Positions 1-33,630 of a stretch of DNA of 50,445 nt are shown here, piece by piece (positions within the stretch are counted from its first letter, which is position 1; the number at the start of each line of letters is the position of its first letter). Source of the stretch: Candidatus Altimarinota bacterium (GTDB lineage Bacteria > Patescibacteriota > Gracilibacteria > BD1-5 > UBA2023). The notes under the pieces were generated by a model that searched no databases, had not been told where the DNA came from, and saw only the letters and a program-made list of their open reading frames with translations. The stretch spans positions 1-50,445 of the forward strand of contig JACMPX010000014.1 of assembly GCA_014377245.1 (NCBI GenBank), in the 5' to 3' direction. A program made the translations under genes and the position numbers.

Positions 1-2410
1 ATGAACTGTTGCTACAAAGATCACTCTCACATCACTCTCCGCACTCGGCCCACTTGCGTATAATAACACAACGGGTGCATTCTCTCTTGCCCTCGCAAAC
101 TCCACTACGACAGGAGCCCTCTCAGCTACAGATTGGAATACCTTTAATAATAAACTCTCCAATAGTCTCACCAATGGGAATATCTGGATCGGTAATGCAT
201 CAAATATTCCAACCGCTCAGTTATTATCAGGGGATGCGACACTTTCGAATACTGGACTTTTCACCATAGGAACTGGTGCCGTGACCTCTACTAAAATACT
301 CAATGGTACACTTCTCTTTGCTGATATTGCTTCCAATGGTTGTTTAACAGGTGAGATATTTAAATACAATGGTACATCGTGGATATGTGGAACAGATCTT
401 TTGAATTGATTGATTGGTACTATAGACTCAGTAGCTAAATCTGTGAATGGTGCAGTATACTCAGGATCTAACCTGATCCTCCAAACAGCAGATGCGACAA
501 ATCCAGGACTTGTATCGACTACGGCCCAGACATTTGCAGGAAATAAAACCTTCTTAAATAATGTCACGATCAATGGTTCTCAGACAATTACTACAAGTAC
601 GATCGCTAATCTCGCAACTGGTGGTACAATCGGAACAGCGGTAGCGACTGTTGATGTATTCACAACATTCAATGTCAATCAGACCACTGCAGATCAGACA
701 ATCACTCTCCCGACTCCTACAGTAACTATAGCGGGTAAGATGGTCTATGTGAACAATATCGGTAGTGTCGAGTTCATCATGGTAGGTTCCCGCGTGAGAG
801 GCAATACGGGTAGATCATTCATCTGGAATGGTACTGCATGGTCTCTAGTGGGAGACTCCAATGATCAGAGTCAGATAATCGTCAGGAAAACAGCAGATCA
901 GACCAATGCGACAGCGACTCTCGCCAATGATACACAACTCACGATGAATATCGGTGCCAATGAGCAATGGGTTATCCAATATAATCTCAGTAGCAATGCA
1001 CAAGCAAATGCAGACTTCAAGTTTGCAGTAACTGCACCAGCAGGAGCAACTTGTAGTGTATCAGCGTACGATCCAGAAGGTGCTACCGCTCAGGCAAATA
1101 TCGGTTGTGGAGTAGCATCAGGACTGATTGCAGCAAGTGGACTCGATGATCCAATCTGGGTCAGTGCAGTCGTCACCAATGGTGCAACGGCAGGGACAGT
1201 CAATCTCCAATGGTCAGAGTTCACCGTGAATGGTGTTGCTACTATTCGTCAATGAAGTAATCTCATAGCATACCGTATCCGTGGAGCTGATCTTGCTGAG
1301 GTGTACTATACGAGTGATACCACCATTCAGGAAGGAGATCTTGTTTCTCTCGCAGGTAATGGAGTCTCTCAAGTTCAGAAATCGATTCGTGCCTATGATA
1401 GTCGGTCTCTTGGTATTATCTCGACCAAGCCAGGTATCGTTATCGGTGCAGCAGATGGTACTGGCAAACCAGTCATCGTGGGTCTCTCAGGTCGTGTACC
1501 AGTCAAGATCTCAACCAAAAATGGGGATATCAATCCAGGTGATTATATCACGACTTCTGATATATCAGGTGTTGGTATGCGAGCAACTCGTGCAGGTCAC
1601 GTCATCGGTAAGGCACTCACAGGATTCGCAGGTGGATCTGAAGGGATAGTTATGGTATTCATCCAAAATACTTACTTCGATGGAGTCTACGATGATGTGA
1701 TCACACCTCTTACTAATACCGCAACAGGTATACTCAAAACAGATAGCATGATCACTACATCAACCTATAGTGTACCAGGCCCTTCTCTTATTAGTTCTCC
1801 AGTGGTCACGACATCGACTCCGACTCCTCTCGTCCCAATATCTCAGAGCATAGCCAAGAACGATGCTGACTACCTTGCAGCACTTGCGAGCACTGCCCGT
1901 GACGTACAAGAGAAAATTGTTGCAACTATCATGACAGGTGTACATCTCATCCGAGACCTAGTCGTCCTCCAGATCACTGCTCTGAATGGATACTTCGATC
2001 AAGTATGGACACGAGAGACACACACAGAGAAAATCTGTGTCGGTACAACAGGTAATGAGACCTGTATAACCAAGGATCAACTCGATGCTCTCATCCGTAT
2101 GTCAGTGACAGCGAGTGGGACAATGTCGAGTACTATTCCAGTGATTCCAGCAGTGACAACTCCGGTTGTACCAACTACCACTACAGTAACTCCTAAGACT
2201 AGCACCACAATAGTAGCCACTCCGACAGAGACGACTCCCATATCGACAGTAGTAGAAACAATAGTTACCACAAATTCAGTTATCGCGAGTCCTCCGCTGA
2301 CTGAGGGTACTTGAGTTATAGGGGTTATCGCTCCTGTGACCGAGAGTACTCAGACTCCAGTAGTCATTGACGGAGTTCCAACTGAGTCAGTTATGATCAC
2401 CACGCCATAG
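1..2410 (+). CDS. Secreted fibre-like surface protein, 3' part (5' end outside window)
   Basis: The frame is open from base 2 to a TAG at 2408-2410, reading TGA as Gly at 2, 404, 1253 and 2312. The N-terminal visible part is low-complexity beta-type sequence rich in Thr, Asn, Gly and Ser, with patterns such as ATDWNTFNNK that resemble tail-fibre and CPR adhesin repeats. Around 1280-1690 lies a conserved-looking module (RGADLAEVYYTSD, then GRVPVKISTKNGDINPGDY) that recalls the C-terminal part of large CPR exported proteins. Near 2030-2100 is a segment with two cysteines (KICVGTTGNETCITKDQL). The last ~80 residues are a Thr/Val/Pro-rich tail. Role in attachment is inferred from composition. I saw no phage genes nearby, so a phage tail fibre is less likely. 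Confidence 0.75.
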
Positions 2411-2488: not shown

Positions 2489-2839
2489 TTATTTCTGAGT
2501 TGGAGATACAGGAGTAGTTGTACCACTACCATCCTTTATGACTCCTGCTTTTTTGAGACAATCGACACTATAGAGTGATACTGCTTTCCCACTTCCGTAT
2601 GAAACTGGTACCTCATTTTTACAGCCTTCTTGGTATTGTTTTTCCATAACGATTCCGAGATCAGTGATCGCTTTCTGGTATCCAGCAGCCTGTCCCTGAT
2701 TAGCACCATTCACGAATACATCATTATTTATCTTATTGACGACTGATGGATAGATACTATCTACAACTACATAGAGAGTTGAGAGCACGAGCCAAGAATA
2801 CAGAAGACCAGTTTGCCAATCTTTGACATATGTTTGCAT
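2489..2839 (-). CDS. Small single-pass membrane/exported protein, unknown function
   Basis: The ORF is 116 aa with start MQTYVKDWQTG and a TAA stop. One hydrophobic segment near the N-terminus (GLLYSWLVLSTLYVVVDSIY) looks like a membrane anchor or uncleaved signal. The remainder is soluble, with two cysteines (QEGCKNEV and VDCLKK) that could form a disulfide outside the cell, and a Thr/Pro tail. An upstream in-frame start at 2914 would add a Lys/Tyr-rich stretch translated from AT-rich DNA that looks like promoter; I chose the downstream ATG. No TGA occurs in frame. I do not recognise the family. Confidence 0.6.
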   Translation of the reverse strand: MQTYVKDWQTGLLYSWLVLSTLYVVVDSIYPSVVNKINNDVFVNGANQGQAAGYQKAITDLGIVMEKQYQEGCKNEVPVSYGSGKAVSLYSVDCLKKAGVIKDGSGTTTPVSPTQK

Positions 2840-2963
2840 ACTATAGGGGGTAAAAATATATACCAATTTAGTATATCTTTTTTTATAAATTTTCCACTTT
2901 TTTTTGCAAAGCATATTTACTATAATTATATAGTATGTATGATAATAGATCTGATTGAGATTT

Positions 2964-3212
2964 TTATGAATATATGAGCTTCAGTTTCTCATCTTTTGAC
3001 AGTTGTTTGATGGCATATTCTCGCCTGCATGCCTCGCTACGGTCTGAGAATTCTTCAAAATATATGAGCTCTACAGGACGACGATTCTTTGTATATTTTG
3101 CTCACTTTTTATTATCAGTGTTATGCTCTTGAGTACGTCGATGGAGATCAGTAGTGATACCTGTGTAGAGGGTCGAGTCAGCACAGCGGAGGATGTAGGT
3201 AGAGTAATGCAT
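2964..3212 (-). CDS. GIY-YIG endonuclease superfamily protein (UPF0213/YhbQ-like)
   Basis: This 82-aa gene (TAA stop) is complete only if TGA is Gly. It begins MHYSTYILRCADSTLYTG, a GIY-YIG core variant, followed by ITTDLHRRTQEHN. The TGA codon supplies the Gly of KKGAKYTKNRRPVELIYFE, which in this family is normally a glycine, and the C-terminus matches the family's EYAIKQLSKDEKLKLI pattern. Length is typical of YhbQ-type single-domain proteins. The family is thought to act on DNA structures or in repair, but its cellular role is poorly defined. It lies 41 bp downstream of the ABC-F gene across a terminator. Confidence 0.9.
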
Positions 3213-5036: not shown

Positions 5037-8000
5037 ATGAAAATCTCTCAATTTTTCTCGTACATCCCATTCCAAAAAACTATTGCCGCAGTCCTCGTCA
5101 TGATGATCCTCGTATCACAGACGATCCATGTGGATTTTTTTGATAGTGTTCTCGCAGGGCCAGAGAACTATAGAGATATCGTATCTATCGTGGTAGATCG
5201 TGATACCTACGCAGCTGAGAGATCTCGAGTTCTCCGGTATGCGGGGGATATTGCAGGGTATCTCGGGTGAGTTCGAACATCGATACTCGTCGTTGCAAAA
5301 GATACTCCAGTTGCAACTATAGCAACCAAAAATGAGAAACTCTACTATGAAGGTGATAGTGAAAAATGAGTCTCATCACTCGTATGAACTATTCTCATCG
5401 GCAATATCCCTATTCCCATCGTAGAAAAGGATGGAGCCAATTTCTCGAGTCTCTATCCATATGTAGACTTCGCAGATAAGTCATTCGTCTATGATCCGAG
5501 TAGCACGCGGTATATATATCAAAAAAATTCTTGATTAACAGAAGCTGTTGATATCTGGCATGGCGTCATCAATCCTGCAGTTGGGCGGAGCTGGTCAGGT
5601 GCTCTCGATATACGCCAGATAGGACAATTCCTCGATAAGACCCATGAATTCTATACCAAGAGTGGCAAATTCGCACCATCCAATATACCCCCAAAAGTAT
5701 TTTATTATGACTGATTTAGTGAGTCAAAAAGTATCAATGCTCGTAGTCTATTTCAGTATACTCTCACTATGAAAAATGCTGAGAATATTGCCTATTCTCG
5801 ATTTACCAAATACCTCTTACGTGATGTCACCAAGGCTCTCACTACATTCGATAAAACAAACGAAGATCCAGATATCGCATCTACATTTGCCTCTCTTGGA
5901 TTGCCAACTGGTGGAGATACACTTGCTGAGGATCAGATTAGCAAGCTCCCAGATATACAATCTCGAGATGTGATATTGTGATTTTTGAAGAATTTTAAGT
6001 GAATTTTTAATGAAAAATCTCTCTGAGATGAGCTCCTATCAGTCCACAATGCTGGTAGATACACTAGTTGATCTACAGTAAAAGCAGATCTCTTGCCTAT
6101 ATCTATCAGTGTCATGGATGAGATAGCTCGTAGTACTCTCCGTGAAGCAAATAATGCTATAGAGAAACAGATTGATACTCTGTTGATCGATCAGAAATAT
6201 GCTCGACGTATCCCTATTCTCGATGAGATATCACTCTGAAGTGGCACTACTGATCGCAATAGTCTCCATATGAGTATATTACAGAACTATATGTTCGGTA
6301 AAAAGAGTACAGAGATCAATGATCCACTTCAGTGTACTATTGCTCGTGGATCGACTGGCACTATTACAGAATTTGGGAGATCTCAGCTCGTGGAGGCTAA
6401 TGTCGCATTTGATATTTCGAAAACCGAGTCTCAGATCGAGACACTCAAAAAAGATACAGAACTCCTTATATGATTGAAAAAACCAAATTGTTTTCCAAAT
6501 AGTAAGCCAAGAATAGATTCTTATTGGTGAGGGAATAGTATATTGCGTATAGCTACAGCAACATGAGATCTGAGCGCTATCCTCGACACGTTCCCCACTC
6601 CCACACAGTTCAGCTGATTCACAGCACCGATATACTCCCTCTGAGGAATGAAAGAATCTAATAGATTACCAATCTGATGAGTCAATGATTGTCTCCCTGG
6701 TGGATTGCAATATCTCCTCAGCCCAGCCCGACTGATGACATACACTGAAGATGTATTATCAGGTTATTGAGAATCAGCGGTCGTCATTAGACAAAACTGT
6801 ACTACGGCATATCCGAGTGAGTGGACAACTTGAGTACCAGGAGGTTGTTCACGTCCATCCGTTTTTCTCGGAGCTGAGAGTGCTCCACGATATACCTGTA
6901 TTTCTGATGTAGTAGCTTCGACTGCCATTCCGAGTTTTAGCACTTATGTCACAGAATACTGAACTAGTGTAATTTGAGGTTGTATCAATGGAGCACTGAC
7001 TCTTGATGGTAAATCTATCATGAACAAGTCCAATACCTGTATTACTACCTCATGACCAGCAGATGATCTCATAACTATTGATGAAACTCAATACAAGAAT
7101 GTAATATTTCATACTATCCCATCTCTCTATCATCATAATTCCCCAACTGATGAAGAGATTTTAGCAGCCAAATCCAATACAGTCACCCCATCTCTTCCTA
7201 TAGATATTGAGCGTTACGTTGAGTTTTTTACTCCAAAAGGTAATATTGCTCGTATTCATTATCCGAATTTTTTTGATATTAGAGCCAGTGATATATCCAG
7301 TGCTCGCAACTGGATACGTGATCAAGGTGACCGAGAGTGGCAAGCTATAATAGATCGTGAGCAAGTAACTACAATGAGTCTAGAAGAAACAAAGGTAGCA
7401 GAATTTCTATCTCCTGGAGTATTGCCTACAGTACCTATTGACTGGAATATATATATCTCCGATGAGATGATCACTAAGATTCTACAATCTAGGAACTGGC
7501 TCCAACCTGATATATCAGTAAAATATAGACAAGCTATAGAGTCAATGCTCTCATATTCTAATGGGTCTGGATCTACCACGTCTCCAACAACACTCCCACC
7601 TCAGATCCCAGTTCTTTGAAATGAGTATGAGATTGCATACCTTGGTTTGCCATCTTCTTTTGATGCTGACTTCTCACAATGAAGTAGTAGTAGTGCTATT
7701 ATCAATCAGTACGATACTCGACTGCGGGAGATCGAGTGAGCCAACATATCAGATGAATTGGTTCGAGATGGTTTGATTGAGTCGAACAATCCAGCTACAG
7801 AGTGTGGACCCCCTGACGGTGTCCCTCTTTTACAATGGCCGAGTGCTATCATGTGTTGGATCAAGGCCCAGTTTCCTCCACGTATACTCGCAGGCTCTTG
7901 CTGACCGTCAACAATCGGACTCGATCCGCCTCGTACTTCTCCTCTTGTTTCACCCTGAGATTCTCTCGCAACTGATACTGGTGCGCTTACAGTTTTTTAT

Positions 8001-11000
8001 GCAGGATCACGTCTTATACCGCATCTTCCGAGGTCGAGTATGCAACTTAGCGATAGTATCACAGTTGATTTCACACTACAAAAAGCTGATACAATACTCG
8101 GTAGCCTGCCAGGTACGACCGCATACCTTGAGATTATATCTGGTACGAGCGGTGGTAAAAAAATCGAGAAATCAGATCTCCAAAATTATCTCGATATTTC
8201 ACCAAGTAATCTGACTGTCTGAGAAAAATGAGCAAATTTTGTTCTCATATCTCGCTCCATAGCAGCGAATTTATCACTACGAGCATACTATATCCTCCCA
8301 CTTGCGGGTGGCTGAGAGATACGTATTGATTCTACTCCATTCCAGATACAGATCACACCTGAGTATTATTCACTCAGACTCGAACAGTCATGATCAGTCA
8401 TTGGGAATGTGGACGTCACCTCACCTGATCCTATATGATTGAGTATCTTACCAGTATTTCCTGATGGATCGAGTATCATATTGCCCCCAACAATATCAAT
8501 ACAAATACTAGATGATATCGATAGAACTCTATTATATTCACGTTCTGATGTTGATCCCAATCTCGTAACTCTTCCTACAGATGTAACCAAGAAAGTATGA
8601 GTATATCGGGTACTCATCCGAGATAGTAGGTGAGTGAGCGGTGAGCTGACATTCGGTGTCATATCATGATCACTCAGTCAGATTCGCGTCACCCCTGTAT
8701 CATCAGCACTCGTACGTGGTACGAGTACACTCGCTATGATCAGATTGCTCGATCGTCTCAGCAATCCTACTAGTCCAGACCTCCATACACTTAGGCTCGA
8801 TATATCTGGTGGCTATCTCGTCGATGCTAATGGAGATAAGAAAACAAGCATGAGTATGGATATAATGGAGTCACAGATCCCAGTCATACTTTGATCAGAT
8901 ACAGTTGGTACACTACGTATTACTGCAACAGTAAATGAGACTATTACAAATACTACAGAACTAACTATATATGATACTGCTCGTATTATACTCATGAGAG
9001 ATCGCGATCCTCGTGTCTGAGACGAACCGATATGAGCTCGCATCGAGATACAAGATGCAGCTGGCGTGAGGATGGCAGGACTATCTTCTGTTGTATCATG
9101 GTGACTTCCAGATGGTGCTGGTATATTTTCAAAAAAGTCGATTCGTATAACAGATGGTATCTCTGAGCCATTTGACTATATACCAGGTACAATTGCAGGT
9201 AATCATGCTCTCATGCTCGATGTAGTTGGTATCGGCTCTCTCACGAATATAGTTTTCTCACTGCTACCATGAGACCCCCTCTATACTAATCATAGTATAG
9301 TCGATAATACTATCGTGTTTGCATTGAGAGATCGATATGGCAATATGACTCAATCGAATTTTTCAGCTACAATCTCACGCAATGTATGACCGCTTCAGAC
9401 TATCAATTTCGTGAATGGTGAATATACTCTGCCACTACATTGAGGCTACTATGAGGTAAGTGTACCAAAACTCAAAGATTATAATATATCATATAAAGAC
9501 AGTTCAGGTACATATACAGTAGGAGGTATAGATAAATATATCGCATATATAAAGGGAAATGATGAAAAAATAAACTTTGCTCCTGATTATAATGCTCGCT
9601 ATACTGTTCTAGCAGGTTGATCATTTTTGCGAGAAGGGGAAGATATCCTCTATGGTACAGCGCCTGGACTCTCTCAGAGCCTCGCTGTGAGTACAATTCT
9701 CGATTCTCCGTATAGATATGATACATTTTTGTCTATATTTCCTGGAGGAACATATACTATTGGCAATACTCCTGATATCGCTATCCAAACGAGTATCTCT
9801 CTCGATAACAATATACCGCTTCTCACAGTATCTGATATAACTACCCACAAACAAATAGCTCGTATACTCTATCCGATGAAAAGTGCTCGTCTCGAAACAT
9901 GTCGACAGACACTGACCAATGTATGTAGTCAACCCTCTACTAGTCCCACGATCCGACTCAGTATTCCAACAGGATCTCCTCTCAACACAAAAAGTAATAC
10001 AGATTCTATCATTTTACAGTCCAATAGCCTAGATATATTATCTATATATACTAGTGGGAGTATATATATGAATCCTGATATTACGTTGATTCCTCGTGAT
10101 AATAGCAATATAGGACTCGAGATGGCTGTGATGCAATGAGGCAAGGAGGTTGCGACTATCACCTATATGATGGATAAAACTCTATCAGTTGTGACAACTA
10201 GTGAGATCAATCCGACTACACCAAATAATACTCCTATTATACTAAACTCAGGATACTCTATATCAATTATTCATAATAGCTCACTCTCTAGTAATATTCT
10301 CGGGTACAAGATATGGCGACCAAACAATACCCTCGAGATCGATGAGAATAAAAATGGACCAAATCATACGAACTCACTCGGTATTTTATCAGAACTCCCA
10401 TGAGTTGGATGGGGCAATAATAATACTATGCTACTCGCATATGCTGGGTGAGACACTGTTGGCGAGTCGACTCGATTTTTTCATACGTATTGACTCATTA
10501 ATCTCTGAGACCCTGTAGCACATATCGATCATGGACGACCTGGAACGGAGATCGATGGAATAGATCGGACTGTTGGATCTATTGTTGCTCGCAGTAGTGA
10601 GAAGGGGATTTCTGATTTTTTTCATCGGGATATGGATGCAGATGGTATAGAGGATCTATTGATCGTATATGCAGATGGCTATATTGAGTTATTTCTCAAC
10701 AGATGAGGAAAGTTCAGGTCTCGAGGAATGATTATCTATAATCGAGATATCGATAGTAAAAAAATATCATTTGCAGACTTTACCCATGATGGTTATTCGG
10801 ATATTGTCTGAATAAATTCAACAGGTGGACTCATACTCATCGATAACACGAATCGTAGATTCTCACGTCGTGATATACTCCTTGAGTGAGGAGCAGTTGT
10901 CCCGAATCATATATCACAATTTCATATCTATGATATGGATAGCGATGGTCGTGATGATATCACATATATTACATCAGGGTGAGAACTTGGTATTCTTTAT

Positions 11001-14000
11001 GGTACAATGACGCCTGGAACTTTTATCAAAAAAATACTCGATCCTACACTCTGAATATCTCTTTCTACTACCCCGATACTCATAGGATGAGCTATCAAGA
11101 GTGATCAGACTCCAGTGATCAACTGATCACTCAGTGTGACCCCAACATCGAGCACTACAATAGATGATACCTTACTTCGAGCAGAGGTATACTATCAATA
11201 TACTCAGCCAAATACCACACCATCCGTGATGAGTATAGATGCTGTAACACTCTCATGAGTCTATTCTGATGTATGATCCAATACTATATCGAGTAAGATC
11301 GATACTTATGTTCGTAGTCAATATGCCAGTGCGTATGGACTTGAGATCGAGAAGAAATATGCCAACTTAACACATACAACACTCTATCCAAATGATCGTA
11401 TCAATACTATAATCCGTATCCACAATACGTCTAACAAAACGATGAAGAATGTAGAATATCTCGATACAATTCCCAAGATATTCTCACTAGAGTCAACACG
11501 GAAATACACCATCAAAAAATGAGGTACAAGTGTGTCTCGTGACTTCGAGAATATCTGAGATAATGAATATGATGCTCATTTCGTTGTAGGAGATATAGCA
11601 CCATGAGCCATAGTAGAAATAGGATATGAGCTCATAGCATTGTCTGCGAGTTACTGAGATATGATCGTCGGTGATCTCGAGCGTGGTACGACAGGTGCTG
11701 ATATCTATGGTGATGTAGGATTTCGGACATCTACGACCTGTGGAGCTGAGCTGCTCCTCTGGACATCAGGCCCAGACGCTAGAGAATATACTCGAGGTAC
11801 TCATAATTTTGGATCTATATCACTCCCAGATGGTATAGCTAGTCGACTAACTGATGCTGACAATAACAAGATCCCGGATAGTATAGAGACGATGAGTCGG
11901 GTCGATAGACTAAAAGCGTATGCAGATATGAGTGCAACTAATGGTCCACAAGCACAATCAATCATCAAAACTACCAAAACTGGTAATCAGCTCAATATTG
12001 GATTCGATGAATCCTCTGTGGCAAGTATAGAGGATGTCATCCAGAATCTGGCTAATGGACTCTCTTGTGGATTCGGAGGTGGCTCATGTATGAGCTTCCC
12101 GATTAACTGGGCACCACTTGCACCAGGGAGCTCTCCGACTTTATTTGGTTTACCACTTGCACCCAACTTGATGACTCCATCAGCAGGGTTACCAGTCTTC
12201 TCAGCAATGACAGGTATTCCTGTTTATGGTACATGGTGATGCTTTCCTATACCATCTACATTTCCACCTTCACCGATAGGATTATCTAATACTTGTCTCT
12301 GAAACCTTTCAAGTGCAGGATGAATCCTCTGAACATGGGATCCAACGAATTTCCTCCGTATTTTTGTCACGCCGACTCTGACTCTGGGCATGGGTACCGC
12401 TATCTGTATGTGATGACCGGCCATGGCTATGGGTATGGTACCTCCACCTTGACTCTCACCTCTTATTCAATGAGGTAATTGTATAGTCATGGTGAAGCCT
12501 ATGAATGTGTGTAAGTGAGATGGCTCATCTAGTGATGGTGATGTCAGTGCAGTCTCTGGACTTGGTACTATTAGTGATACATGGAATGCAAGTAGTTGTC
12601 AAATCAAGGCAAATATACTGAGTGAGTCTGACGATCGAAATCTCACAAAGAGTATAGTCAGCTATCTCAAGAGTCCTAATGCCAAGGAGCTCACAACTAT
12701 ATATACTGGTATCAGTAAAAGAGGAGCAAGGTCTATCTCAATATGACCGCGACTCGCTATCGGCTCATCATCAAGTGGAGGATCAGAGATCTCTGTTGAG
12801 GTGGATTCCAATACTCAGATATCAGATATTAGCTCTGTTATAAAACTCAAAAATAAGCGTATTGCTGCGTTCCCAGATTTTATCATGGACTGGTTGACTC
12901 GTCAGACTGAGGAACTCACTACATCACTGTTTACACCGCCGAATCTTACCATCATACCTCCGACGAGTCTCGGGCAGAATGCGCAGTTAGATAGCAGTTT
13001 CGATGACTTCGCGAAGAAGCTCGGATCTGCATACTCGAGTGCAAATTATGAGAATATAAAACAGGGAATAGGTAAGCCAGTTGGTACAAAAACATCTACT
13101 GCTCCTGGCATTCCTGATAGTCTTAAGTGAATAGCATCGAATTCAAAATGAACACTCAATACGCTGAAAACAGCATATACTGAGATAGGAAAACTCCCAT
13201 TTATTTCCATCAAACAAGTCAATATTCCTCTCAATATCCCCTGGTTTGATAAGAGAGAACTCGATCGATATGCGAGATCTCTCGATGGATACCTCAGAGA
13301 TTTAGAGAGTGCTAGTAGGAATCTCTGTATCAGTGATCCATCTGCTGCATGTCTTGATAGAAAAGCGAAACTCCAGTCTGGATGATTCATCACTAGTATT
13401 CGAGAAAACCTCAAACGAATCGAAGAGTATAAACGATTTCCGATGAAGATCCAAAAATATATCACTTGGAAAGAGCGTTATATCGTACAGATTCTCTGCA
13501 ATATCAATAGCATACAGCAGATCACTGGAGGTTGGCTTCGTGATAATGGAGTGAGATTTCGTAAATGGGCTGAGCTATTCGTTCTTATCAAGGCCATTGC
13601 TGATTGATGGCAGCCACTTCTTGATATATTTGCTGATACGAGTGCGACTTGTAGTGTCTGTCGGAATGAGCGCAATAATCTCCAATATTGGAAATTCAAA
13701 CTCCTCTCAATGCTTATCCCATCTATTCCAGTTCTGAAGTTCCCGAAGTGGCCAGATATCGTCTTAGATCTTTCAGATATTAGACTCGGGATTAATATTT
13801 CGATGCCCAATTTTATCCCAAGGATTTCGCCTATCCGACTGCCGAATCTCCCGAATCTATCTATTGGATCAATTGGTGCTTCACTCGATCTCCCTGCTAT
13901 TCCAATTCTCCCTGCACTACCTCCACTCCCAGATCTCCCAGATCTCCCATCACTCCCTCGGATCAAGCTCCCAGATCTCCCACCTCCACCAAAAATACCT

Positions 14001-16991
14001 AAGATTGCTGGATCTATAACAGCATTTCTCTCTATTATGAAGCTCATCTCGAAGATGTATTGTTATTATCAAAAAACAGTTCTCATTCCTGAATGGCAAG
14101 TGGGTGATGTTATAGCTCAGAGAACAGAACGACAAGGGACGTTACCATTTGATTTTATCAATCTTGATATGCCACAATTCTCACTTCCCTCTATCAAGGA
14201 AATTCGAGTCGCAAGTCATGTGAATTATGAGCTTCGTTCTGATTTTATCTCTGAATTTGCTCGCTCTATAGTCAAACCAATCAACTCATTCCAGACAGAT
14301 ATCCAAGGGATTATACCGAAAAAAATAGGTACTGATATAATTGTCCCAAGCGTGAAAGTAAATATAAAACCAAGAACATATCTTCAAGATATGAAGATCC
14401 AATCTCTTCCACAGAGTGTAACTACAATGATAGATATTATGAATCGAGAGAAGGATATTTTTCTCGACACAGACCACTTCGCATCATATCTCATTGAGCA
14501 ATTCCAACAGCCAGAATTGGTACATAATAATATATCATTACGGAGAGAGCTCGCAACTGCGAGGATCGAGAGCGATGCTCTAGAGAATGATATCACCACA
14601 TTCAATAATGAGCGATTTACTCTAATGCGAGAATATCTAAGTGCCGAGAGTGATACCAATGCTGAGCTGCAGAATATCGTAGACCTCTTCTCTCAGGAGA
14701 TGTTAGGAGAACCACGACAACTAATTGCGGATATATCAAGCAGCTCTGCCCGCTCTACATGACTCTTAGCCGAACTCGATACATACCAGAGTGGTGCGCC
14801 TACTCCAAAAATAGAAATGAAACAAGAGAAGAGACTTGCTGAATCTACTCTATCTCTCCATGGTAAACTCTCACGTATGGTGGCAGCTACTACAGTTGGG
14901 TGATCTCCTAGCGACCCTGGTGATACTATATCTGCGGGATATAGTGCGAACTATCAAGGGATATATATACGTACTCCGAGCGGTTTACAGACTCGATTAT
15001 TTGATTATATTGCTCCTATAAATAGTACAACACGAGTAGACTCTGTTGATATCGATAAGGATGGTGATATGGACTATCTATATCTACTCGATGGGGTATT
15101 GTACGTCAAGTACTCTTGGATGCAAAATCCGAACAAGATCATCGACAACTCAGTAAAAATATCAGAGGTACCGAGAGATGATACTGTCCAATATGTACCA
15201 AATTATTTCCATGAAAATGTATCTACTCCCAAGAGTCTCAACTATTCATTTGTACCTGCATCTTCAACAGAGACCGAGTGGAGAGTAGAGTTCTATGATC
15301 GATATGCAGAATGGGATCATATAGATATTGGAGATCATGATCCCATGAGTACACCCAAGACGACGATCGATATGCTACTACAGACTCCGACTACAACGGA
15401 TCCAACATATCCTGGTTTAGTGGCTCATCCGATAACTCGCTCGCTATCCTCAGTTGCTGATCGTGATTCATTTATTCTTGAGGGTCGTAGTATAGATGTC
15501 TATACCGGTGCATTATCTATATCGCTCTCGCCTGGCCGTGTACTCTATACCGGCAACCGTAGAGTGACTATCACTTACACCAATCAGTCCACACCAATAC
15601 CCAGATCTATATCTCTCGATCCACAAACTGGATACGAGTTTTCAGAAATAACTGAGATCATGACTACATGAGGACGTCTCTATCTGATTGGAGCAGAGGA
15701 TAGTTCACGATATACGTATTCCGATGATCTTATTGGTGTACCTATACTTCCAGGGATGAGGCTCTATGCATCTGATGCAGGAGCTATACTTCGCAATCAT
15801 ACAAGTGATCGAGATATTGCTCTGATCGGTTGAGCTACTTATCTCACCTATGATCTTTGAGAGAGAGCAATACAATATCAAGTATCTCTCCCATACCAGA
15901 ATTCTTACTACTATGCGAGACTCCATAATCTGACTGATACACAGACAGATCGAGCGGGAGTGATACTCCTCTCGCCTCAGACTACGAGTGATGATGGAGC
16001 ACCTATCATCGATCTTCCATCGCGTATCCGTCTCCCCATATACTCCAAAAAATCATACAAAATATCAGATATTCTCACGGATCTGAGTGCCGCGAGTATA
16101 ACAATCGATAGTGATCTCACTACAGATACTAACGGTAATGGTATATTTGATGATGATTTTACTACTATTGGTGATGGATTTGTTATATCTAACTCAGATA
16201 TTTCATTTGGTTCATTCAATACCCCAGGTAAGTACAATATGGTACTCCGGGCTGTCGATGAGGTCGGCAATACTACTATCATGCCACTTTCAGTAGATAC
16301 TTATGCTCTGATCCCTCAGATACAGAGCGTGACCAATTCAGGTGTTATCCTTGGTAATCTATCAGAGTCCCTCTCTGGTACTCCAGTTCACTTTTTCCGA
16401 GTGAGACCAGGAGAATGACCTACATTACTCACGCCTACTGCTACAAGCTCAGACCCAACTGGAGGATTCTCGACACCTTCATTTTTTACGAGTCCTGAGA
16501 TCATCACCATGCGAACGAGTACTGATAGTGGGATTGTAGATATCCATGGAATATTCGCACTCCCATCTGGATATCGTACAGAGATATCTCCCGCGAATGA
16601 CGCTGCTCCTATGCAGATATATACGATGAGCCCATCTGGATCGATCTCGCATATCCATACTCTATCACTTCCAGAAGATATCAGATTCATCGATCGCTCA
16701 CTTTCTACTACAACAGCTACTGGAGTCATTATTTCTCCTCTGGCGCTCGTCACACGAGTAGTACCAGCAAGTTCGACAGATATATCTATACCATGAGGTG
16801 TCTATATTACAGATTCTACATATCATCCTGTCTCTGCTATTGCTCGAGATGGCAATATCTATACCATCGACAAGACCATCACACTACAGTATAGGGTTCA
16901 AGATGGATATATGACTATTGATATCATAAGACAAGGGGCCGTCATAGCGAGTATAGAGTATCATATTGATTTTTTCTATACGATGCGGTAG
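5037..16991 (+). CDS. Giant exported multidomain surface protein (3,984 aa)
   Basis: I read codon by codon from ATG 5037 to TAG 16989-16991 and found no in-frame TAA or TAG but about 80 TGA codons. The N-terminus has a short basic stretch then a hydrophobic segment (IAAVLVMMILVSQTI), a signal or anchor. Residues about 30-170 form a domain with TILIGNIPIPIV and SLYPYVDF. FG-GAP/EF-hand-like Asp-rich loops occur near residues 1866 (DMDADGIEDL), 1966 (DMDSDGRDDI) and 3338 (DIDKDGDMDY), and calcium-type loops near 2273 (DADNNKIPDSIE) and 3698 (DTNGNGIFDDDF). A Leu-Pro-Asp repeat lies near 2960. Near 3715-3755 an Ig-like stretch ends RAVDEVGNTTIMPLSV. Likely a calcium-stabilised cell-surface protein, perhaps for host contact; I recognise no catalytic domain. 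An upstream ATG at 5001 in frame is possible but would bury the signal. Confidence 0.85.
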
Positions 16992-19815: not shown

Positions 19816-20160
19816 ATGATCAAAAAAATTCACATCGACCTTAAGAATATAGAAACTCCTAAAGAATTTTTCCAACTTTTTTCTGATACTTTTTCATTTC
19901 CACCACATTTCGGGAACAATTGGGATGCTTTTTTTGATGTAATGCAATCACTCGAGCCAAGTGCTGATATATTCCATGGTATGCGATATCCACTCACTGG
20001 TATCCATCTTATACTCTCTAGTTTTGATGTATTTGAGGGTATATTTCCTGATGAACAGATGATTATTTTGCGATCTATCCTAGTAGATCTATCATTGAGT
20101 CATGAGTTGCGAGCTGATGGCCTTTCGTTCACATTTGAGATAGCTTATACATCTTTGTAG
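19816..20160 (+). CDS. Barstar-family (barnase inhibitor-like) protein
   Basis: The protein is 114 aa with TAG stop, starting MIKKIHIDLKNI. It has the barstar core: IETPKEFFQLFSDTF, then FPPHFGNNWDAFFDVM, equivalent to the family's YGxNLDALWDxL helix that plugs the RNase active site, and a C-terminal beta strand (GLSFTFEIA). There is no TGA in frame. It begins 4 bp after the TraB-like gene. No barnase-like RNase was found in the window, so its partner is unknown. Barstar-like folds also occur as orphan immunity proteins. Confidence 0.82.
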   Translation: MIKKIHIDLKNIETPKEFFQLFSDTFSFPPHFGNNWDAFFDVMQSLEPSADIFHGMRYPLTGIHLILSSFDVFEGIFPDEQMIILRSILVDLSLSHELRADGLSFTFEIAYTSL

Positions 20161-24769: not shown

Positions 24770-26323
24770 ATGAATACCCCAAAAAATAAAGATAGTATTA
24801 ATCAGGATACATTAAATAATCCAATTGTCATATCAGCACAGACAGGTCTCGATTGATACCGTCTTCGCAATTTTTATATTACCAATTGATTGCAGGGATT
24901 TGTTTGGATGATTTTTCACTTTTCTGTGGTTTTCTTTTTTGGTTTTCTTCTCCATAATATAGCGCTCGTTGGTATATTCCTTTGATTTGCGAATCTGATA
25001 GCATTTGTTATCGATATTCCTCTTGGTATTATTCAGAGATATGTACCTACTCGTCGTATGTTCATCATTGCCGCTATATCTCAACTCATTGCTACAGGAA
25101 TATTTTTTGCCTTTATTTTCAAGATATTTGGTATACTCGAATATGTATCTGGAGTTATCACTCCTGAGTCACTCCAATCTGGTACTGATTGGTTCTTCGG
25201 GAGTGTATTGAACTTAATAGGAGTGGTCATTGCATCGATCTGCTACGGTCTGACCAAAGAGATCAATGATGTATCAACATTTGGATATATCCTCTCACAT
25301 GCAAACCCGAGTGAATATGGTACTATCCTCGCTCGCAATAATATCACATTCGGATTGGGGTCACTCATAGGTCTCGTCCTGTCAGGAGTCATACTATCAT
25401 TCTCTCCAGCATTTGCAGTTGTTATTCTTTGATGTATTATTGCTTGATTCTTGTTATTCACAATCAAATTCTTTGATAACTCGTTGGACTCCATCGAGAT
25501 CAGTGATATATCAGAATTTCGTATATCTGTACAAAAATGGAACAAAGAAAATGTGCGAGAATATATAGTCGAGACGGTCCAAAAAGTCGACCTCGAAAAA
25601 ATAGTAAATAGAGCAAAATATCTCATGCTAAAACCAAAGCAGAAAACAGAATGAACCAAAATTCCATGGGCTAATATTTTGGTCTCCAGTAAGAGAGAAT
25701 TCTCGATCATCTGGGAAATATGTATGCATCATCCGATGCATATATCACTATTTTGGACAATCACGCTTGTTCTCACATTTGGATTTTGGGATACATTTGC
25801 CTCGAGCTTTTTGCTCAATTTTCTCGATCAGATGAAGCCAGGCTGGAGCTATATATTACTTGCTATGATAGGCATACCAGGTATAGTGCTCCAAGAAACT
25901 GCGAGTAAAATAGGGGCCAAAATTGGTATAGTAACTATTGGTATAATCGGTCTCGCACTCTCTGGATGATCACTTGTATTGATGGGTATATTTGCTCTAG
26001 GATCGAGTATTAGTCCTATAATTATATTATCTCTGGCACTCATCAATTCTCTCGGGTATGCATGTGGCATGTCGACTGGGCAGAATCAGTTTCTCGATAC
26101 CTATAATCGTATCTATGCTGAGCATGAGAATCTCACAGAGATCAATTCTAATGCATCATCAGGACCAATGAAAGTCATCCAAAACCTTGCGAATGTCATT
26201 GGTTTGGTCGTAGGTGGAGCACTTCTCAGTTTTGGATTCGCAGCATTCTTTATTATATTTGGACTCGTGATCTTATGACTCCTCTATTGGACAGTCATAG
26301 TAAAAGAGAGAATAAAACTCTAA
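24770..26323 (+). CDS. MFS-like multi-pass membrane transporter
   Basis: The protein is 517 aa with TAA stop and Gly-TGA at several membrane positions. About 12 hydrophobic segments are visible, including MIFHFSVVFFFGFLLHNIAL, FIIAAISQLIATGIFFAFIF, ILLAMIGIPGIVLQETASK and VIGLVVGGALLSFGFAAFFI. A cytoplasmic loop of about 70 charged residues (WNKENVREYIVETVQKVDLE) splits the two six-helix halves. This layout fits the major facilitator superfamily, but no substrate motif could be named. Its 3' end overlaps the convergent PriA-like gene by 4 bp. No Shine-Dalgarno motif precedes the ATG. Confidence 0.75.
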
Positions 26324-27303
26324 CTCCACTCAAGAGTGACACTCCGATTCCTAACAATTTCGACTTCTAGATTTGTAAGTATGTATGAGAGATCTCGGTC
26401 TTTGAGGATGATCTTCTGTTGCCACTCGCCACCACATCGCTCGCGGATATCTGTATCAAAAGCGAAAAAGGTACTGGATTTTTTTAGGAGTCCGATTTTG
26501 TTGATGAGTTTTCTCATTATATCTTCGACTTTTTTCTGTTGTTCGTCATGCACTCGTATAGTCACGAGCTCAGCAAATGGTGGATATCGGAAATCTATCC
26601 TCTCACGAGATAGATATGAGAGAAATGACTTGGTATTTCCCTCTATTATTTCTCTCAGAAGTGGATGATCGGGAGTATAGGTCTGGATATAGAGAGGCAA
26701 GCCTTGTTTTTTGTAGTAGGATATTTCATTGTAGATATCCTCCTCAATATGGTATGAGGGTATAGACATATTCAGCTCAAAAGAGAGCCAAATCACCGCT
26801 CATATCCCTGGATGGACAATACTATTACCTATTTGCGTTGTTATAATAATATCACTCGTGTTGATTTTATCATAGAGTACAGTAGCTTTTTTGCCTGTAT
26901 CACTATCAATACGTAGGATCACCATATCATTTGTTAGGTGTTTTATGAGATTATCCTCGATCTGTTGTATGCCTACTCACACAGGGTTGATCCGAGATCC
27001 ACTACATTCTGGACAGACTATAGGGAATGGTGCTACCTGACTACACTGGTGACAAATTAGACATTTATTCGGTGTAGTATGGTAGGCGAATGCGATATCA
27101 CAATGGGGACACTTCTCATAATGACCACAATCAGCACATATCCATGCTCTAGCATTACCGCGACGCGAATAGAATATGAGAGATTTCTTACCAATTTGCT
27201 TCACACTTTCAATCACGCTGAGTATCTCAGTTGAGATATATGGAGCTTCGATTTTGGCGGATTGGAGTGGGATGATAGTGAGAACTGATGGCAATATATA
27301 CAA
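26320..27303 (-). CDS. Degenerate PriA-like protein (C-terminal half only)
   Basis: The frame is 327 aa from a TTG start (27303) to TAG. It aligns by eye with the second half of primosomal helicase PriA: GKKSLIFYSRRGNARAW, then the zinc-binding region CADCGHYEKCPHC, CLICHQC and CPEC with eight cysteines, then GVGIQQIEDNL (PriA: GxGTE). The N-terminal DNA-binding part and the Walker A/B helicase lobe are missing. Motif V is degraded (TTQIGNSIVHPG where GTQMxxKGxDFP is expected) and the AGRAGR motif VI is deleted. The end, YIQTYTPDHPLL and RYPPFAELVTIRV, is PriA-like. It therefore cannot be an active ATPase. It follows nrdR in the same frame right after its TAG, with no ATG near the start. Confidence 0.72.
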
Positions 27304-27867: not shown

Positions 27868-30800
27868 TTACTGTACCGTTATTTTTGTATATTTTCCAGT
27901 GGAATGTATCTCAGGTTGGTACATATAGTAGGCAGTGACAGGGGGAAGGAGATAGGTACCGACATACTCTGGTCGGATATAGTAGGTGTAGGTATATGGA
28001 TGATCACTCTGCCAGATGTAGTCCTGAGTAACGAATATACGATCTATTCGAGCCTCGACATGAGTCCATCCGTTGAAGTATCCATATTCTTTATTTACAT
28101 CCGTCGTACTCGAGCTCTCAGTATTAAATATTCACTGTATTGGTCTCCAGCCTCCCGGGATATAGTCCTCAAGTGTGAGATAATATTTGGCTGTATTCTC
28201 TTGTTTCGGTGTCACAGTAATACGCACCCTATAGAGCTCTCACTTGGCAAATATTCCAGTAGTGACATGTGTTGATAAGATGAATTGTCATTGTTTGTCG
28301 AGTCATTTTGATTCATCGACTTTTTCAAATACTCGAGTCACCCCTAGATCAAGGTGATTTTTGCTTTTTACAGCGAATATATTGGTAGGCTCGTCATAAA
28401 TACTGAGTTCATAGTAGAGATTGCTACTGACTCCAGAAATATCGAGTGTATTCCCAAGCATAGATCTGCGAGTATCATAGCTGAATCTATGAGTTCATTT
28501 TTTGGGATTCAAAGGAATTTTGAGTTTGCCTGTAGAGATCGTGAATGATGAAAGTGAGTTCGGTCAGTCTGATAGCTCTATAAGTCACATGAAGAGTTGT
28601 ATCTTTGATTGTGTCGATATAAAATATGATTCTAGATTGACTCACTTGAGAATATCTGTGATGATGGCTCATGCACGCTTCTGCTCACCGATTCGTATGA
28701 GGAGCCTGGCATATATCGCACGATCAGCGGTATCATCCCAGTACCAGTAGGATTCGGTTTTTCTAGAGTTCATTTGGGCTTCTAGATTTTTCTTGGCAGT
28801 TTCATCGAATCTACCCATATATAAAAGTCCAAGACTGTACATGAGATACCCATGACGAGAGAGCTTATTTATATCGATTGACTTTTGTATCGCTTTGGAT
28901 TTTGGATGTTTTCATAGAGCAAGAGTAGCAAAAATCTCCGATTGATTATCCATATCATCCCCGATAGGTATATTGCTAATATAGTCAAGCCCTCGTATTA
29001 TCACCTCATCTGGTATACTCACTCCCAGCTTACGGAACTCATAGAGAGAGCGAATCACATATGGTGTGACATGCTCATTCACATTAATATCTCACTCCCA
29101 GTACTTCCAGCCACCAGTACTATCTTGCATTTTGAGTATTTTAGCAATTCACTCAGTAACATTTTTTTGAGCCTCTAGCATATTGATTGATAAACTGAGA
29201 TTTGTTGCTAGTTGTATTGCCACAGCATTTGGCAGAGTGCTCGAGATCGTCTGCTCGATACATCCATATGGATAGGCAATCATAGATTGTATGATCTTCT
29301 CAGGATTATGTAATGGACTATCTGATACAGATATTGTTACACGTGATTCTGGACTGGTATTTTCATCTATTTTTGGTATCAGCAATACTGTTCCAGTATT
29401 TGCAAAACCAGATATACGAAAAGTGTCAGCTATAATTGGCGGTTTTGATACATACAGTATTTTTGTAATACTGTCGAGAATGATTCATTTTTTATCTTTG
29501 AGCACGAGAGTATATGGAATATTGCCATTCCACTCTTTTCATATTTTTATTTTATACTCTTGTTTGATCGATTGACTAGGATTGAGAATGATTTCCGATG
29601 ATTGTGTTAATAAGGAACCACCAGTACCAATATTCAAATCGAGAGTTGCTCCTGTTATCTGCGGTGTCGAGTTGAATACCGATGCAGTGATAGTCGTTAG
29701 ATCTCCAGAGTATGATAGTGATGGCGCATGCACTTCGAGAGTATATTCACGTCGTACGGCTATTGTTTTTTCTGTTACGGAGAATTGAGAAGATCGCGTC
29801 TGTCCGATCGCTATTATCCGATAATCAGTGACATTGTCTGGAAGTTGGAATATGAATTTTGCCTTCCCACTTACATCTGTCAATATTGACGGATTATAGT
29901 AGGCAGTATTCTGAAATAGTGTCCGTGAAGATATCTGTGCACCATCTCATCATTTATTTCCACTTCCGCCATTCGATCATTTTCTCGATAAAAAACGATT
30001 GCGTTCGATACCAATAGCGGTCATGGCAGTTTTCATTGTGAATGGATATTTCTGGAAAAATTTGGGAATAATATCAAGATCTATATTACCGAGGAGACGA
30101 ATGAGACTTTCATCTACTACCATTATCTCTACCTCACCAGCTACCCCTTTATTATTTGCATCAGTCATAGTGATATCTGCCGAGACTATTTCACGATTTT
30201 TATAGGTTTTTTTATTTGTTTTTATATCCAATATTCATTTTTTGTCTGTTATATCCATGATGATCTCACCATATCCCACAGCATAGGCTTTATCTGTCGG
30301 TCATCCACGTGGGAATGCAATAGCTCCGATGTACACATTAGGATAGAACGTATCATCTATAGTATAGTCTCGAACATAGGTTGATCCAGTGAATAGAATA
30401 TACTCGTGATCTATGACGCCTCCTCGCTCACGTGTGATATAGAGGTATCATCAGCTCGAGAAGGGTGTCGTGATGAGTACATGTGCTAACTCTCCTTCTC
30501 TGTATACAGTCTTCTCTGGTATAACTCTGAGTTGAGTATCTCTGCTCACGAAGTCCCCAGTCATATAGATCAGCGTCTCATGTATAGACTCATTCGGTGC
30601 ACTCAATCACTCTGGAGTGATGGGAAGAATACGCAGAAAATATTCACCTGGTTTCAATCATCGAGTATCGAGATCTATAGTTGACTTGACAATAGATCAC
30701 TCACGAACACGAGTATCAGTACTGTTGATTATCGGAGTTGATTCTCCACGAAGTGTTGATATAGATGCACTCCTATATACTCTGTGGACGAACTCATATC

Positions 30801-33630
30801 GGTATTTTTTTGAAAGACTCTGATCCCATTTTCCTCGCTTAGGTTTTATTATTGCTGTAAGTATATCACCTGGTTTTAGTATTTTTTTCGATACAGTCGC
30901 TTGGAGTGGATTATCCATATCTGTCATCTTATATTGTTGCCCTAATCCAACTAGTAGTGTAGCTGCTGATGTGATACTCTGACTTGTGAGAGGATCTCTG
31001 ATCGTCACCTCAACAGTATAGATATAGTCATCTGAGAACGAAGAGAATTCTACATCAGCTCTGATAATACCATAGCCATCAGCATCGATAGATCCAGTTC
31101 ATTCGGTATAGAACTCAGGCGTCGGCTCATAATAACATCACCAGAAGCAATCTCACCAATTACTCATATCATAGTGAACACTCCTGTATATTCTGTAGGT
31201 TAGTGGTACACTTTTTATCTCACTACCGTTATAGTAACGAGCCTTAACAACTCACTCGATTGTGATATTGGATTTATACGACTTGTCATACCATGGGGTA
31301 GATGTATCAGTATTTGTAATTTCTCGAATATTATTGATGACACCGTTTGTGACTTGATGGCTCGAGAGCTGTACTGTAGCTGTGAATGTTGGGTTAGAGA
31401 ATATTTCTACTTGGAAATTGGCATAGCCATTTCATATGTAAATATTTGGATCCCGTACTAATTGTACTCAGACCGAATAAGAACCGAGAGTGGTGTCTTT
31501 GCTGAGTATGATAGTCGTTGCAATAGAACCATAGGCATTTGCCTTAATTCGCTTACTCGCGATGGATTTTCACTCCTGATCAGTGATATTGATGTCGAAT
31601 TCTTCTCATTCAGGGATCGATAGACTTTTCTCATTTTTTCTCAGATATCCCTTGATATAGATGGTATCACCAGGGAGATAGAGACGCCGATCTGTGTGTA
31701 TATATGCACTATATAGTGATCTTGTTTCCCAGCTATAATCCGACTCCTTCATACCAAAATTCCATCCAGTGATTCCATCATTCCAAGTACTCACTAAATA
31801 GCCTAGATGTCAGTTTCATTGTGATAATGCAACGAAAGAGTTATATCTGCCCTCGTATTCACCCCACCATTCGCTCGTAAGTGAGTAGGGATCATAGCCA
31901 TCAATAGCTCATCGATCTTTTTGTAGAGTACCATCTTTTCCAGTCCTTCATAAAATAGTGCCAGTTCACCAAGACTGAGCTGAGAGTGGTGTATATATAA
32001 TATTATAGCTATTTCTTGTATCCTGTGTATAGAGTTGAGATATGTTATTTCTGAGTGTGATCGATTGATCTGCTCGAGGTACTCCTGTTCGTATATCTGT
32101 AGCCAGGAATTGCATTTTTCCACTACTATCTATTTTCATTGTGATATGAGTATCGATCACTGAGAATACTCTCGGTGGTACCCATCTATCGATAGTACTG
32201 ATATCTGATTTATCAGAAAATGCTAGAATATAGAGTCCTGGAGCGAGTCAACCTGATACGAACAAACTCATAGGAATTGTAGAGACTGTTGTTCACTGTA
32301 TCATAGGAATAGCTTTCTTCACGCAACTCGACACTTCTCGACTGCCGAGTAGGTCATATACGGATTGTATATGAGATTTGTTTCTCAATTCGTTCATCCG
32401 CTCTACTCTCGCATATCCATCGATTCATATTTGACATAGTTCTATGTTATATTCGTTTTTAGCTCCCTGACTCCTGTATAGTTTTGCCTCGACTGGATCT
32501 CAGTATTTGAATATAGTTTTATTGCCAGGTATCTTGAGTGATAGCGATGGTACACTCTTAGCTAGTATATCCATATTCATACTTGTTTTTCTCCCATAGA
32601 TATCTTCGATTGTATCGATATTGAGACTATACTGAGTTCACTCTATGAGATTCGCATATATGACAGCTTTGTTTGGACTGAGTTCTAGGTTATCCTCTGT
32701 GATATTGATTCACTCTGTGATATTGAGTCGTTTCAAGAACTCATTCTTTGCTCTCTGCCGGTGCTCCAGATATTCATCGCTATAGAGTGTCCCACTATCT
32801 GTGAATATATCAGTAGAAAATCGGAACTCTATACGACTCAGCATATTATACTCACTCGAGAGTATATCAGTCACGACACCAGTAGCTGTGAATCTATCGA
32901 GTGGAGCAAATACTATACTCTCAGTATCTCATGCGAGCCCAGCTATGATACAGGCATCACTCGGGTAATTCTCGAGCTCTAGCTGATATGTTCCGATCTT
33001 TCTCTGACTAATAGTATGCTTCTCTATCTCTCTGGTCTTCACTCGAGTCCAGAGTTGGGGATCTCATAGATTCATCCCACAGCTCTCATTGGGTCACATC
33101 TTCCCGATATACCATCTTACATCTGAGACATCGAGATCACCATATCAATAGGTTGTCACTTTGTATGTCATATCCTTTGGTTGGCCTATACGTTTTGTCT
33201 CTATTGTTCTCGGATCATCAGAATAAGTGAACGAAATATTGCGTGGCAGTTCCCATTTTTTCTTTGTTGTAGCATTGTAGATAGTTGCGTCTATTATGAG
33301 CTGATCTCACTTGCTCCAAGCGGCTGGTGTGAGTTCTATAGTATTATTTTTGACAGCAAAATATTCTTCTCATGACGTAGTAGGGTTCCATTTTTTTCCA
33401 TTTTTGCTCATTGCTCATACTATGGCATCCTGATCTAGCAATTCATCGTAACTCGATGTTGCGAACCATGGACGATCTAGGGAGATCATGAGCTTCTTAC
33501 CAGATTGATTCTCGGCTCATAGAAATGAGAAGTATAGGGTGCTCGTTGCAAGATTATATGTGTGATATCCGAGAAAACCTACAAATATTGTTGCTAAGAT
33601 GATGAGTAGATATTGTGAGATTTTTGCCAT
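27868..33630 (-). CDS. Bacterial alpha-2-macroglobulin (YfhM-like), thioester type
   Basis: The protein is 1,920 aa; I checked every in-frame triplet and found only TGA, no TAA or TAG before 27868. It starts MAKISQYLLIILATIFVGFL, a signal anchor. Long beta-rich macroglobulin domains follow (for example RSLYSAYIHTDRRLYLPGDT and YKNREIVSADITMTDANN). The thioester motif YPYGCIEQT places the cysteine near residue 1457, and the helical thioester domain follows (GGWKYWEGDINVNEHVTPYV). The C-terminus (YYIRPEYVGTYLLPPVTAYY MYQPE) is typical of the family. Such proteins trap attacking proteases and are often linked to PBP1C, which is encoded at 44513-46384. Confidence 0.93.

What the first reader, a model, noticed from the sequence alone, without database searches (positions are those of the whole stretch)
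5037..16991. 3,984-codon giant surface protein hidden by the genetic code
One frame carries about 80 TGA codons (hand count) and no TAA/TAG over 11,955 bp. It has an N-terminal export signal, three FG-GAP/EF-hand-like Asp-rich loops in two separated places, calcium-type loops, an Ig-like region and a Leu-Pro-Asp repeat. It occupies nearly a quarter of the window, a large investment for a small cell. A role in host attachment is inference.
Basis: partly seen in the sequence, partly recalled or inferred. Interest (0 to 1): 0.75.

Follow-up and report, generated by a model that had tools for sequence, protein, structure and literature searches.

The report
Core giant surface protein of Gracilibacteria
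The 435 kDa protein is real: it is one member of an undescribed family of exported giant proteins (about 4,000 to 5,200 residues) that most members of one class of ultra-small bacteria carry, including relatives whose genetic code would not hide it, so it looks like core equipment of the cell surface and not a one-off adhesin.

Summary
Confirmed and extended. Window 5037-16991 (+) is one 3,984-residue frame with 82 in-frame TGA, no TAA/TAG, closed by TAG. TGA=Gly is supported independently: Gly is the commonest residue aligned to these TGAs in relatives that use the standard code.

Homologues aligning along most or all of the length exist far beyond close relatives. The N-terminal domain is found in 128/147 genomes sampled around this one, the Leu-Pro-Asp module in 169/242 genomes of the class. 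Neither is credibly found in other classes of the phylum. Complete genes encode roughly 4,000-5,200 aa whether they hold 0 or 327 TGAs, and the gene tree follows taxonomy.

Architecture: export signal; N-terminal domain whose predicted structure best matches gingipain-type (C25) peptidases (VIA Z 10.0) but without a conserved His-Cys pair in the C25 arrangement; Ig-like stretches; FG-GAP/calcium loops; Cys-rich module; a class-conserved helix plus Leu-Pro rod.

Most likely a surface-displayed, calcium-stabilised contact or attachment structure; that function is inferred, not shown. The Leu-Pro-Asp repeat lies in the most conserved region.

The parts
5037..16991 (+). whole giant gene, 3,984 codons plus TAG; 82 TGA=Gly; 434.7 kDa, pI 5.1
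5070..5156 (+). N-terminal hydrophobic export signal or anchor (aa 12-40)
   Evidence: hydropathy peaks in the window and nearly all homologues; conserved ...QTxxVPxF... segment
5148..7751 (+). conserved N-terminal domain (aa 38-905), predicted gingipain (C25)-like alpha/beta fold with insertions
   Evidence: AF2 pLDDT 77, pTM 0.69; VIA-align top five hits all gingipain/PorU, Z 7.8-10.0; class-wide invariant residues
8034..10406 (+). aa ~1000-1790, less conserved, probably Ig-like domains
   Evidence: weak Big_1 match in homologue L079 only; boundaries are inference
10434..11066 (+). FG-GAP/calcium-loop block (aa 1800-2010) with loops at aa 1865, 1914 and 1966
   Evidence: Pfam FG-GAP_3 E=2.7e-12; loop pattern; invariant Asp residues
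12054..12611 (+). Gly/Cys-rich module (aa 2340-2525), 93% identical to the genus relative over aa 2401-2500
13380..13652 (+). predicted long helix (aa 2782-2872) ending in a conserved CxxC (aa 2872-2875)
   Evidence: AF2 model 2, helix 463-553, local pLDDT mostly 63-84 in a poor overall model; alignment
13842..14006 (+). Leu-Pro-Asp repeat (aa 2936-2990), [LI]P about every third residue
   Evidence: kept in standard-code relatives
14013..14069 (+). hydrophobic helix directly after the Leu-Pro rod (aa 2993-3011)
   Evidence: hydropathy peaks at this column in most of 31 homologues; below the cut-off used in the window itself
15024..15086 (+). second FG-GAP-like loop (aa 3330-3350; DIDKDGDMD at 3338)
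   Evidence: D3338 invariant

Best explanation
A core, Sec-exported giant protein of the class, inherited from a common ancestor. Its N-terminal gingipain-like domain is probably a binding or scaffold domain rather than a canonical peptidase. The long body carries Ig-like, calcium-loop (FG-GAP) and disulfide-rich modules and a conserved helix plus Leu-Pro rod, and displays these at the cell surface. It would act as a stiff, calcium- and disulfide-stabilised contact structure by which these probably host-dependent cells hold on to other cells. Shown: the gene, its code, length conservation, distribution and inheritance. Predicted: export and the domain fold. Inferred: surface location, lack of canonical catalysis, and attachment.
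For: Collinear homologues along most or all of the length. Class-wide distribution and vertical tree. Conserved N-terminal hydrophobic signal and no other strong transmembrane segment shared by all members. Cys is the best kept of the residue classes tested: 88% in code-25 relatives and 65% in standard-code relatives, as expected of disulfides outside the cell. FG-GAP/calcium loops. Gingipain-like fold. Giant proteins with DUF11, integrin and fibronectin domains were proposed as attachment proteins in the related predator Vampirococcus lugosii (PMC8080830).
Against: No experiment, and no proteome evidence was found. Two families (f7, f10) of near-complete genomes give no match, or almost none, so it is not needed by all members. 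No conserved partner gene. Class-wide conservation is unusual for host-recognition proteins. The predicted model for the rod region is poor.
Confidence: 0.5

Rival explanations
1. Structural envelope protein: a scaffold or S-layer-like component that holds the cell surface together and has no role in contact with other cells.
For: Core, vertical inheritance and near-constant length; disulfides and calcium loops suit a rigid coat.
Against: Codon use is not that of a very abundant protein: TGA fraction 0.27 against 0.05-0.10 in Der, FtsH and the 281-2410 gene. The protein is far longer than usual S-layer proteins (general knowledge). Not found in two families.
Confidence: 0.25
2. Active secreted cysteine peptidase (gingipain- or PorU-like maturase) carrying a long targeting tail.
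For: Top five structural matches are all C25 peptidases including PorU; an invariant Cys433 and, in the giants, an invariant His175.
Against: No Pfam or NCBIfam C25 match. No conserved His shortly before the Cys as in C25 (general knowledge of that family). His175 is lost in short relatives L133/L134 and in L132. The His of VHNAGRY varies.
Confidence: 0.13
3. Contact-dependent membrane-active device: the long helix, Leu-Pro rod and hydrophobic helix engage the membrane of the prey cell.
For: The most conserved stretch (aa 2801-3050) is helix, CxxC, Leu-Pro rod and a hydrophobic helix. Cultivated Absconditabacteria of the group are predators of bacteria (PMC8080830, PMC11452946).
Against: No match to any known pore-forming fold, though the model is too poor to test this. 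No partner gene next to it.
Confidence: 0.08

Closest known systems
Giant membrane proteins of Vampirococcus lugosii (1,392-4,163 aa; PMC8080830)
   Same: Related bacterium in the same larger group; membrane giants with DUF11/integrin-type domains; that genome also has large alpha-2-macroglobulin proteins, as this window does.
   Different: In the passages read, that paper treats them as a heterogeneous set and reports no single class-wide orthologous family, gingipain-like domain or Leu-Pro rod. Whether its 4,163-aa protein is an orthologue was not tested.
Gingipain / C25 peptidases, including PorU
   Same: Best structural matches of the N-terminal domain (Z 7.8-10.0).
   Different: No sequence-profile match; no conserved catalytic His-Cys pair in the C25 arrangement; embedded in a ~4,000-aa protein.
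SPEARE giant proteins of Nanohaloarchaeota (PMC6642349)
   Same: Very long extracellular multidomain protein in ultra-small, host-dependent cells; protease-like N-terminal part plus adhesion domains.
   Different: SPEAREs have serine protease, laminin-G and a cytoplasmic restriction-enzyme domain, mostly behind a C-terminal transmembrane segment; none was found here.
Antigen I/II type helix plus polyproline II stalks of streptococci (from general knowledge)
   Same: A long helix and a Pro-periodic rod in one surface protein.
   Different: No homology tested or claimed; here the two elements are consecutive and short.

Membership tests
C25 (gingipain) peptidases | gingipain/caspase-like alpha/beta fold | tested here: inconclusive
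   VIA-align: RgpB Z 10.0 (2.4 A, 128 aa), PorU 8.2, Kgp 8.1, then a drop to 6.6; but Foldseek finds nothing below E 0.001
C25 (gingipain) peptidases | sequence profile match (PF01364 or NCBIfam) | tested here: not met
   no match in 26 and 21 members, nor in a genome search (in that search no control genome rang either)
C25 (gingipain) peptidases | catalytic His-Cys pair | tested here: inconclusive
FG-GAP (integrin-alpha-type) repeat proteins | FG-GAP repeats with calcium loops | tested here: met
   FG-GAP_3 E=2.7e-12, above the curated cut-off; four loops
SPEARE proteins | serine protease, laminin-G and restriction-enzyme domains, C-terminal transmembrane segment | tested here: not met
   no such Pfam match in five full-length members scanned; no shared C-terminal hydrophobic segment
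Giant attachment proteins of Absconditabacteria/Gracilibacteria | exported giant protein with adhesion-type domains | tested here: met
   comparison with PMC8080830; export by prediction only
Giant attachment proteins of Absconditabacteria/Gracilibacteria | role in attachment to host cells | not testable with these tools
   needs experiment; only proposed in the literature as well

The most novel reading that the evidence does not exclude
An ancestral, class-defining contact machine made of one giant polypeptide: a catalytically dead gingipain-like head on a calcium- and disulfide-stabilised body, with a helix plus Leu-Pro rod and hydrophobic segment that engages or enters the membrane of the partner cell.
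Probability: 0.15. Interest if true: 0.85.

Novelty: new variant of a known kind. Interest (0 to 1): 0.6.

Why it matters
How these ultra-small bacteria touch and exploit other cells is an open question. A giant gene of near-constant size, kept on both sides of a change of genetic code and present across most of a class but in no other sampled class, is a strong candidate for shared core equipment and a specific target for testing. It also shows that gene calling under the standard code shreds this gene in recoded members (longest standard-code piece about 160 aa where there are 148-266 TGAs), so it is easily missed or miscounted, whereas standard-code relatives show it whole.

Tried and rejected
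Sequence searches for the N-terminal domain (Pfam, NCBIfam, PDB sequences) gave only chance-level hits; the recurring weak CoV_RPol_N hit (best E 5e-4) is below its cut-off and was dropped. PHROGs and viral contigs gave nothing, so a phage origin is not supported. Viral fold library: no significant match. Fold search with the second model (aa 2320-3110) is not usable (pLDDT 58, pTM 0.37). Conserved operon partner: rejected; only the Der GTPase follows the gene, and only within part of its own family, with housekeeping genes elsewhere. Catalytic His in VHNAGRY: rejected because it varies. Other classes: two matches at E 1e-4 to 1e-5 to fragments were judged chance.

Full report
Observation. Translating window 5037-16991 (+) with code 25 gives 3,984 residues from ATG to a TAG stop, with 82 TGA codons and no TAA or TAG. 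By composition about 171 TAA/TAG would be expected and the chance of none is about 2e-76; the other frames hold 70-208. The window is a whole contig of a 779-kb, 54-contig genome about 80% complete. The stretch is therefore a real gene.

The code. In five orthologues from families with essentially no in-frame TGA (0-3 per gene), the columns that are TGA in the window hold Gly in 30.5% of cases, next E at 8.9%; columns that are GGN in the window hold Gly in 38.7%. TGA thus reads as Gly. Orthologues carry from 0 to 327 TGA yet complete genes encode about 4,000-5,200 residues; one open frame of 7,874 aa in another family was seen but not examined. Where a gene holds 148 or 266 TGAs the longest standard-code piece is about 160 aa. 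'Hidden by the genetic code' is correct for recoded members only.

Distribution. The N-terminal 1,088 residues match in 128 of 147 genomes sampled around this one. A profile of aa 2320-3110 matches 169 of 242 genomes of the class, 135 of 195 of the better-quality ones. In a phylum-wide sample of 380 genomes the only matches outside the class are two fragments at E 1e-4 to 1e-5, and a profile of the N-terminal domain gives none outside it in 287 genomes. Of two families (f7, f10) with near-complete genomes, all 13 tested lack the N-terminal domain, and the other module gives nothing or only traces there; family f16 has only a short ~640-aa stand-alone relative of the N-terminal domain, next to a recF-like gene. 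Records with names are mostly 'Candidatus Gracilibacteria', with one 'Candidatus Peregrinibacteria'. In viral contigs nothing was found.

Inheritance and constraint. Full-length genes align along most or all of their length. A tree of 28 proteins groups them by taxonomic family, with full support for f2, f13, f23 and f1+f2; f1 itself is grouped with weak support (0.475). This fits vertical descent; the tree is midpoint-rooted and cannot say how often the code changed. Against the genus relative, identity is 64% overall, 93% at aa 2401-2500, above 80% at 2801-3100 and only 33% at 3101-3200. Across the class the strongest blocks include aa 51-150, 301-350, 701-750, 1801-2000, 2351-2500, 2601-2650 and 2801-3050. 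The Leu-Pro-Asp repeat lies inside the last one.

Anatomy. (a) aa 12-34: conserved hydrophobic export signal. (b) aa 38-905: from motifs alone a C25-like fold was suspected and noted before folding. The AlphaFold2 model (pLDDT 77, pTM 0.69) then gave RgpB, PorU and Kgp as the top five structural matches (Z 7.8-10.0; next 6.6). Foldseek alone found nothing significant, and no sequence profile agrees, so the fold assignment is likely (about 0.75) but not proven. Residues invariant in the giants include D144, W174, H175, R341 and C433; no conserved His sits shortly before a conserved Cys, so canonical catalysis is doubtful. (c) Weak Ig-like stretches. (d) FG-GAP block aa 1800-2010 with three calcium-type loops and a fourth at aa 3338. 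(e) Gly/Cys-rich module aa 2340-2525. (f) Long predicted helix, CxxC, Leu-Pro rod aa 2936-2990 and a hydrophobic helix; the model here is poor, so this part has no reliable fold.

Surroundings. Neighbours are housekeeping genes; Der follows the gene only in part of its own family. An alpha-2-macroglobulin (27868-33630, -) lies in the same window and recurs in 75 of 145 class genomes.

Mechanism. Shown: gene, code, family, inheritance. Predicted: export, gingipain-like fold, calcium loops. Inferred: surface display and a role in contact with other cells. Cys codons are kept best among the residue classes tested, which fits disulfides outside the cell. Codon use does not look like that of a highly abundant coat protein, which speaks mildly against an S-layer. 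The nearest published statement is that giant membrane proteins of V. lugosii probably serve recognition of and fixation to the host (PMC8080830). No paper found here describes this family, but the library holds only open-licence papers.

Verdict. The novelty is not one giant gene but a class-wide giant family, apparently one gene per genome, with a gingipain-like head. Function remains open.

Noticed in passing
window 27868-33630 (-): 1,920-aa alpha-2-macroglobulin-like protein with 51 TGA (Pfam A2M, MG2, bait region, TED, bMG10); A2M is found in 75 of 145 class genomes, including families that lack the giant.
   Followed up: partly
window 2-2410 (+): Low-complexity, Thr/Ser-rich gene with no Pfam or PHROGs match and only 5% TGA among its Gly codons, against 27-37% in most neighbours; may be a highly expressed surface protein.
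   Followed up: no
window 19816-20160 (+): Small ORF without TGA that looks barstar-like, between the TraB-like gene and FtsH; kept in genus relatives. Resemblance recalled, not tested.
   Followed up: no
window 26320-27303 (-): 327-aa ORF resembling the C-terminal half of PriA, with zinc-type Cys motifs, starting at TTG; seems truncated against usual PriA. No Pfam match.
   Followed up: no
L133:250-2172 (-) and L134:1351-3261 (+): Family f16 has a short (~640 aa) stand-alone relative of the N-terminal domain beside a recF-like gene, ending in a ...LLGDPC... motif; possibly an ancestral or reduced form.
   Followed up: partly
L128:584-15697 (+): Orthologue with 327 TGA codons in one 5,038-codon frame, whereas some members of family f1 use only 6-13 in a similar gene: very uneven use of the recoded codon between related genomes.
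   Followed up: partly
G076:C37:945-2363 (+) and 25594-27012 (-): Two matches with identical scores in inverted orientation on one contig; possibly a palindromic assembly artefact.
   Followed up: no
families f7 and f10 of the class: Near-complete genomes with no match, or only traces, to the two conserved parts: loss, or divergence beyond detection.
   Followed up: partly
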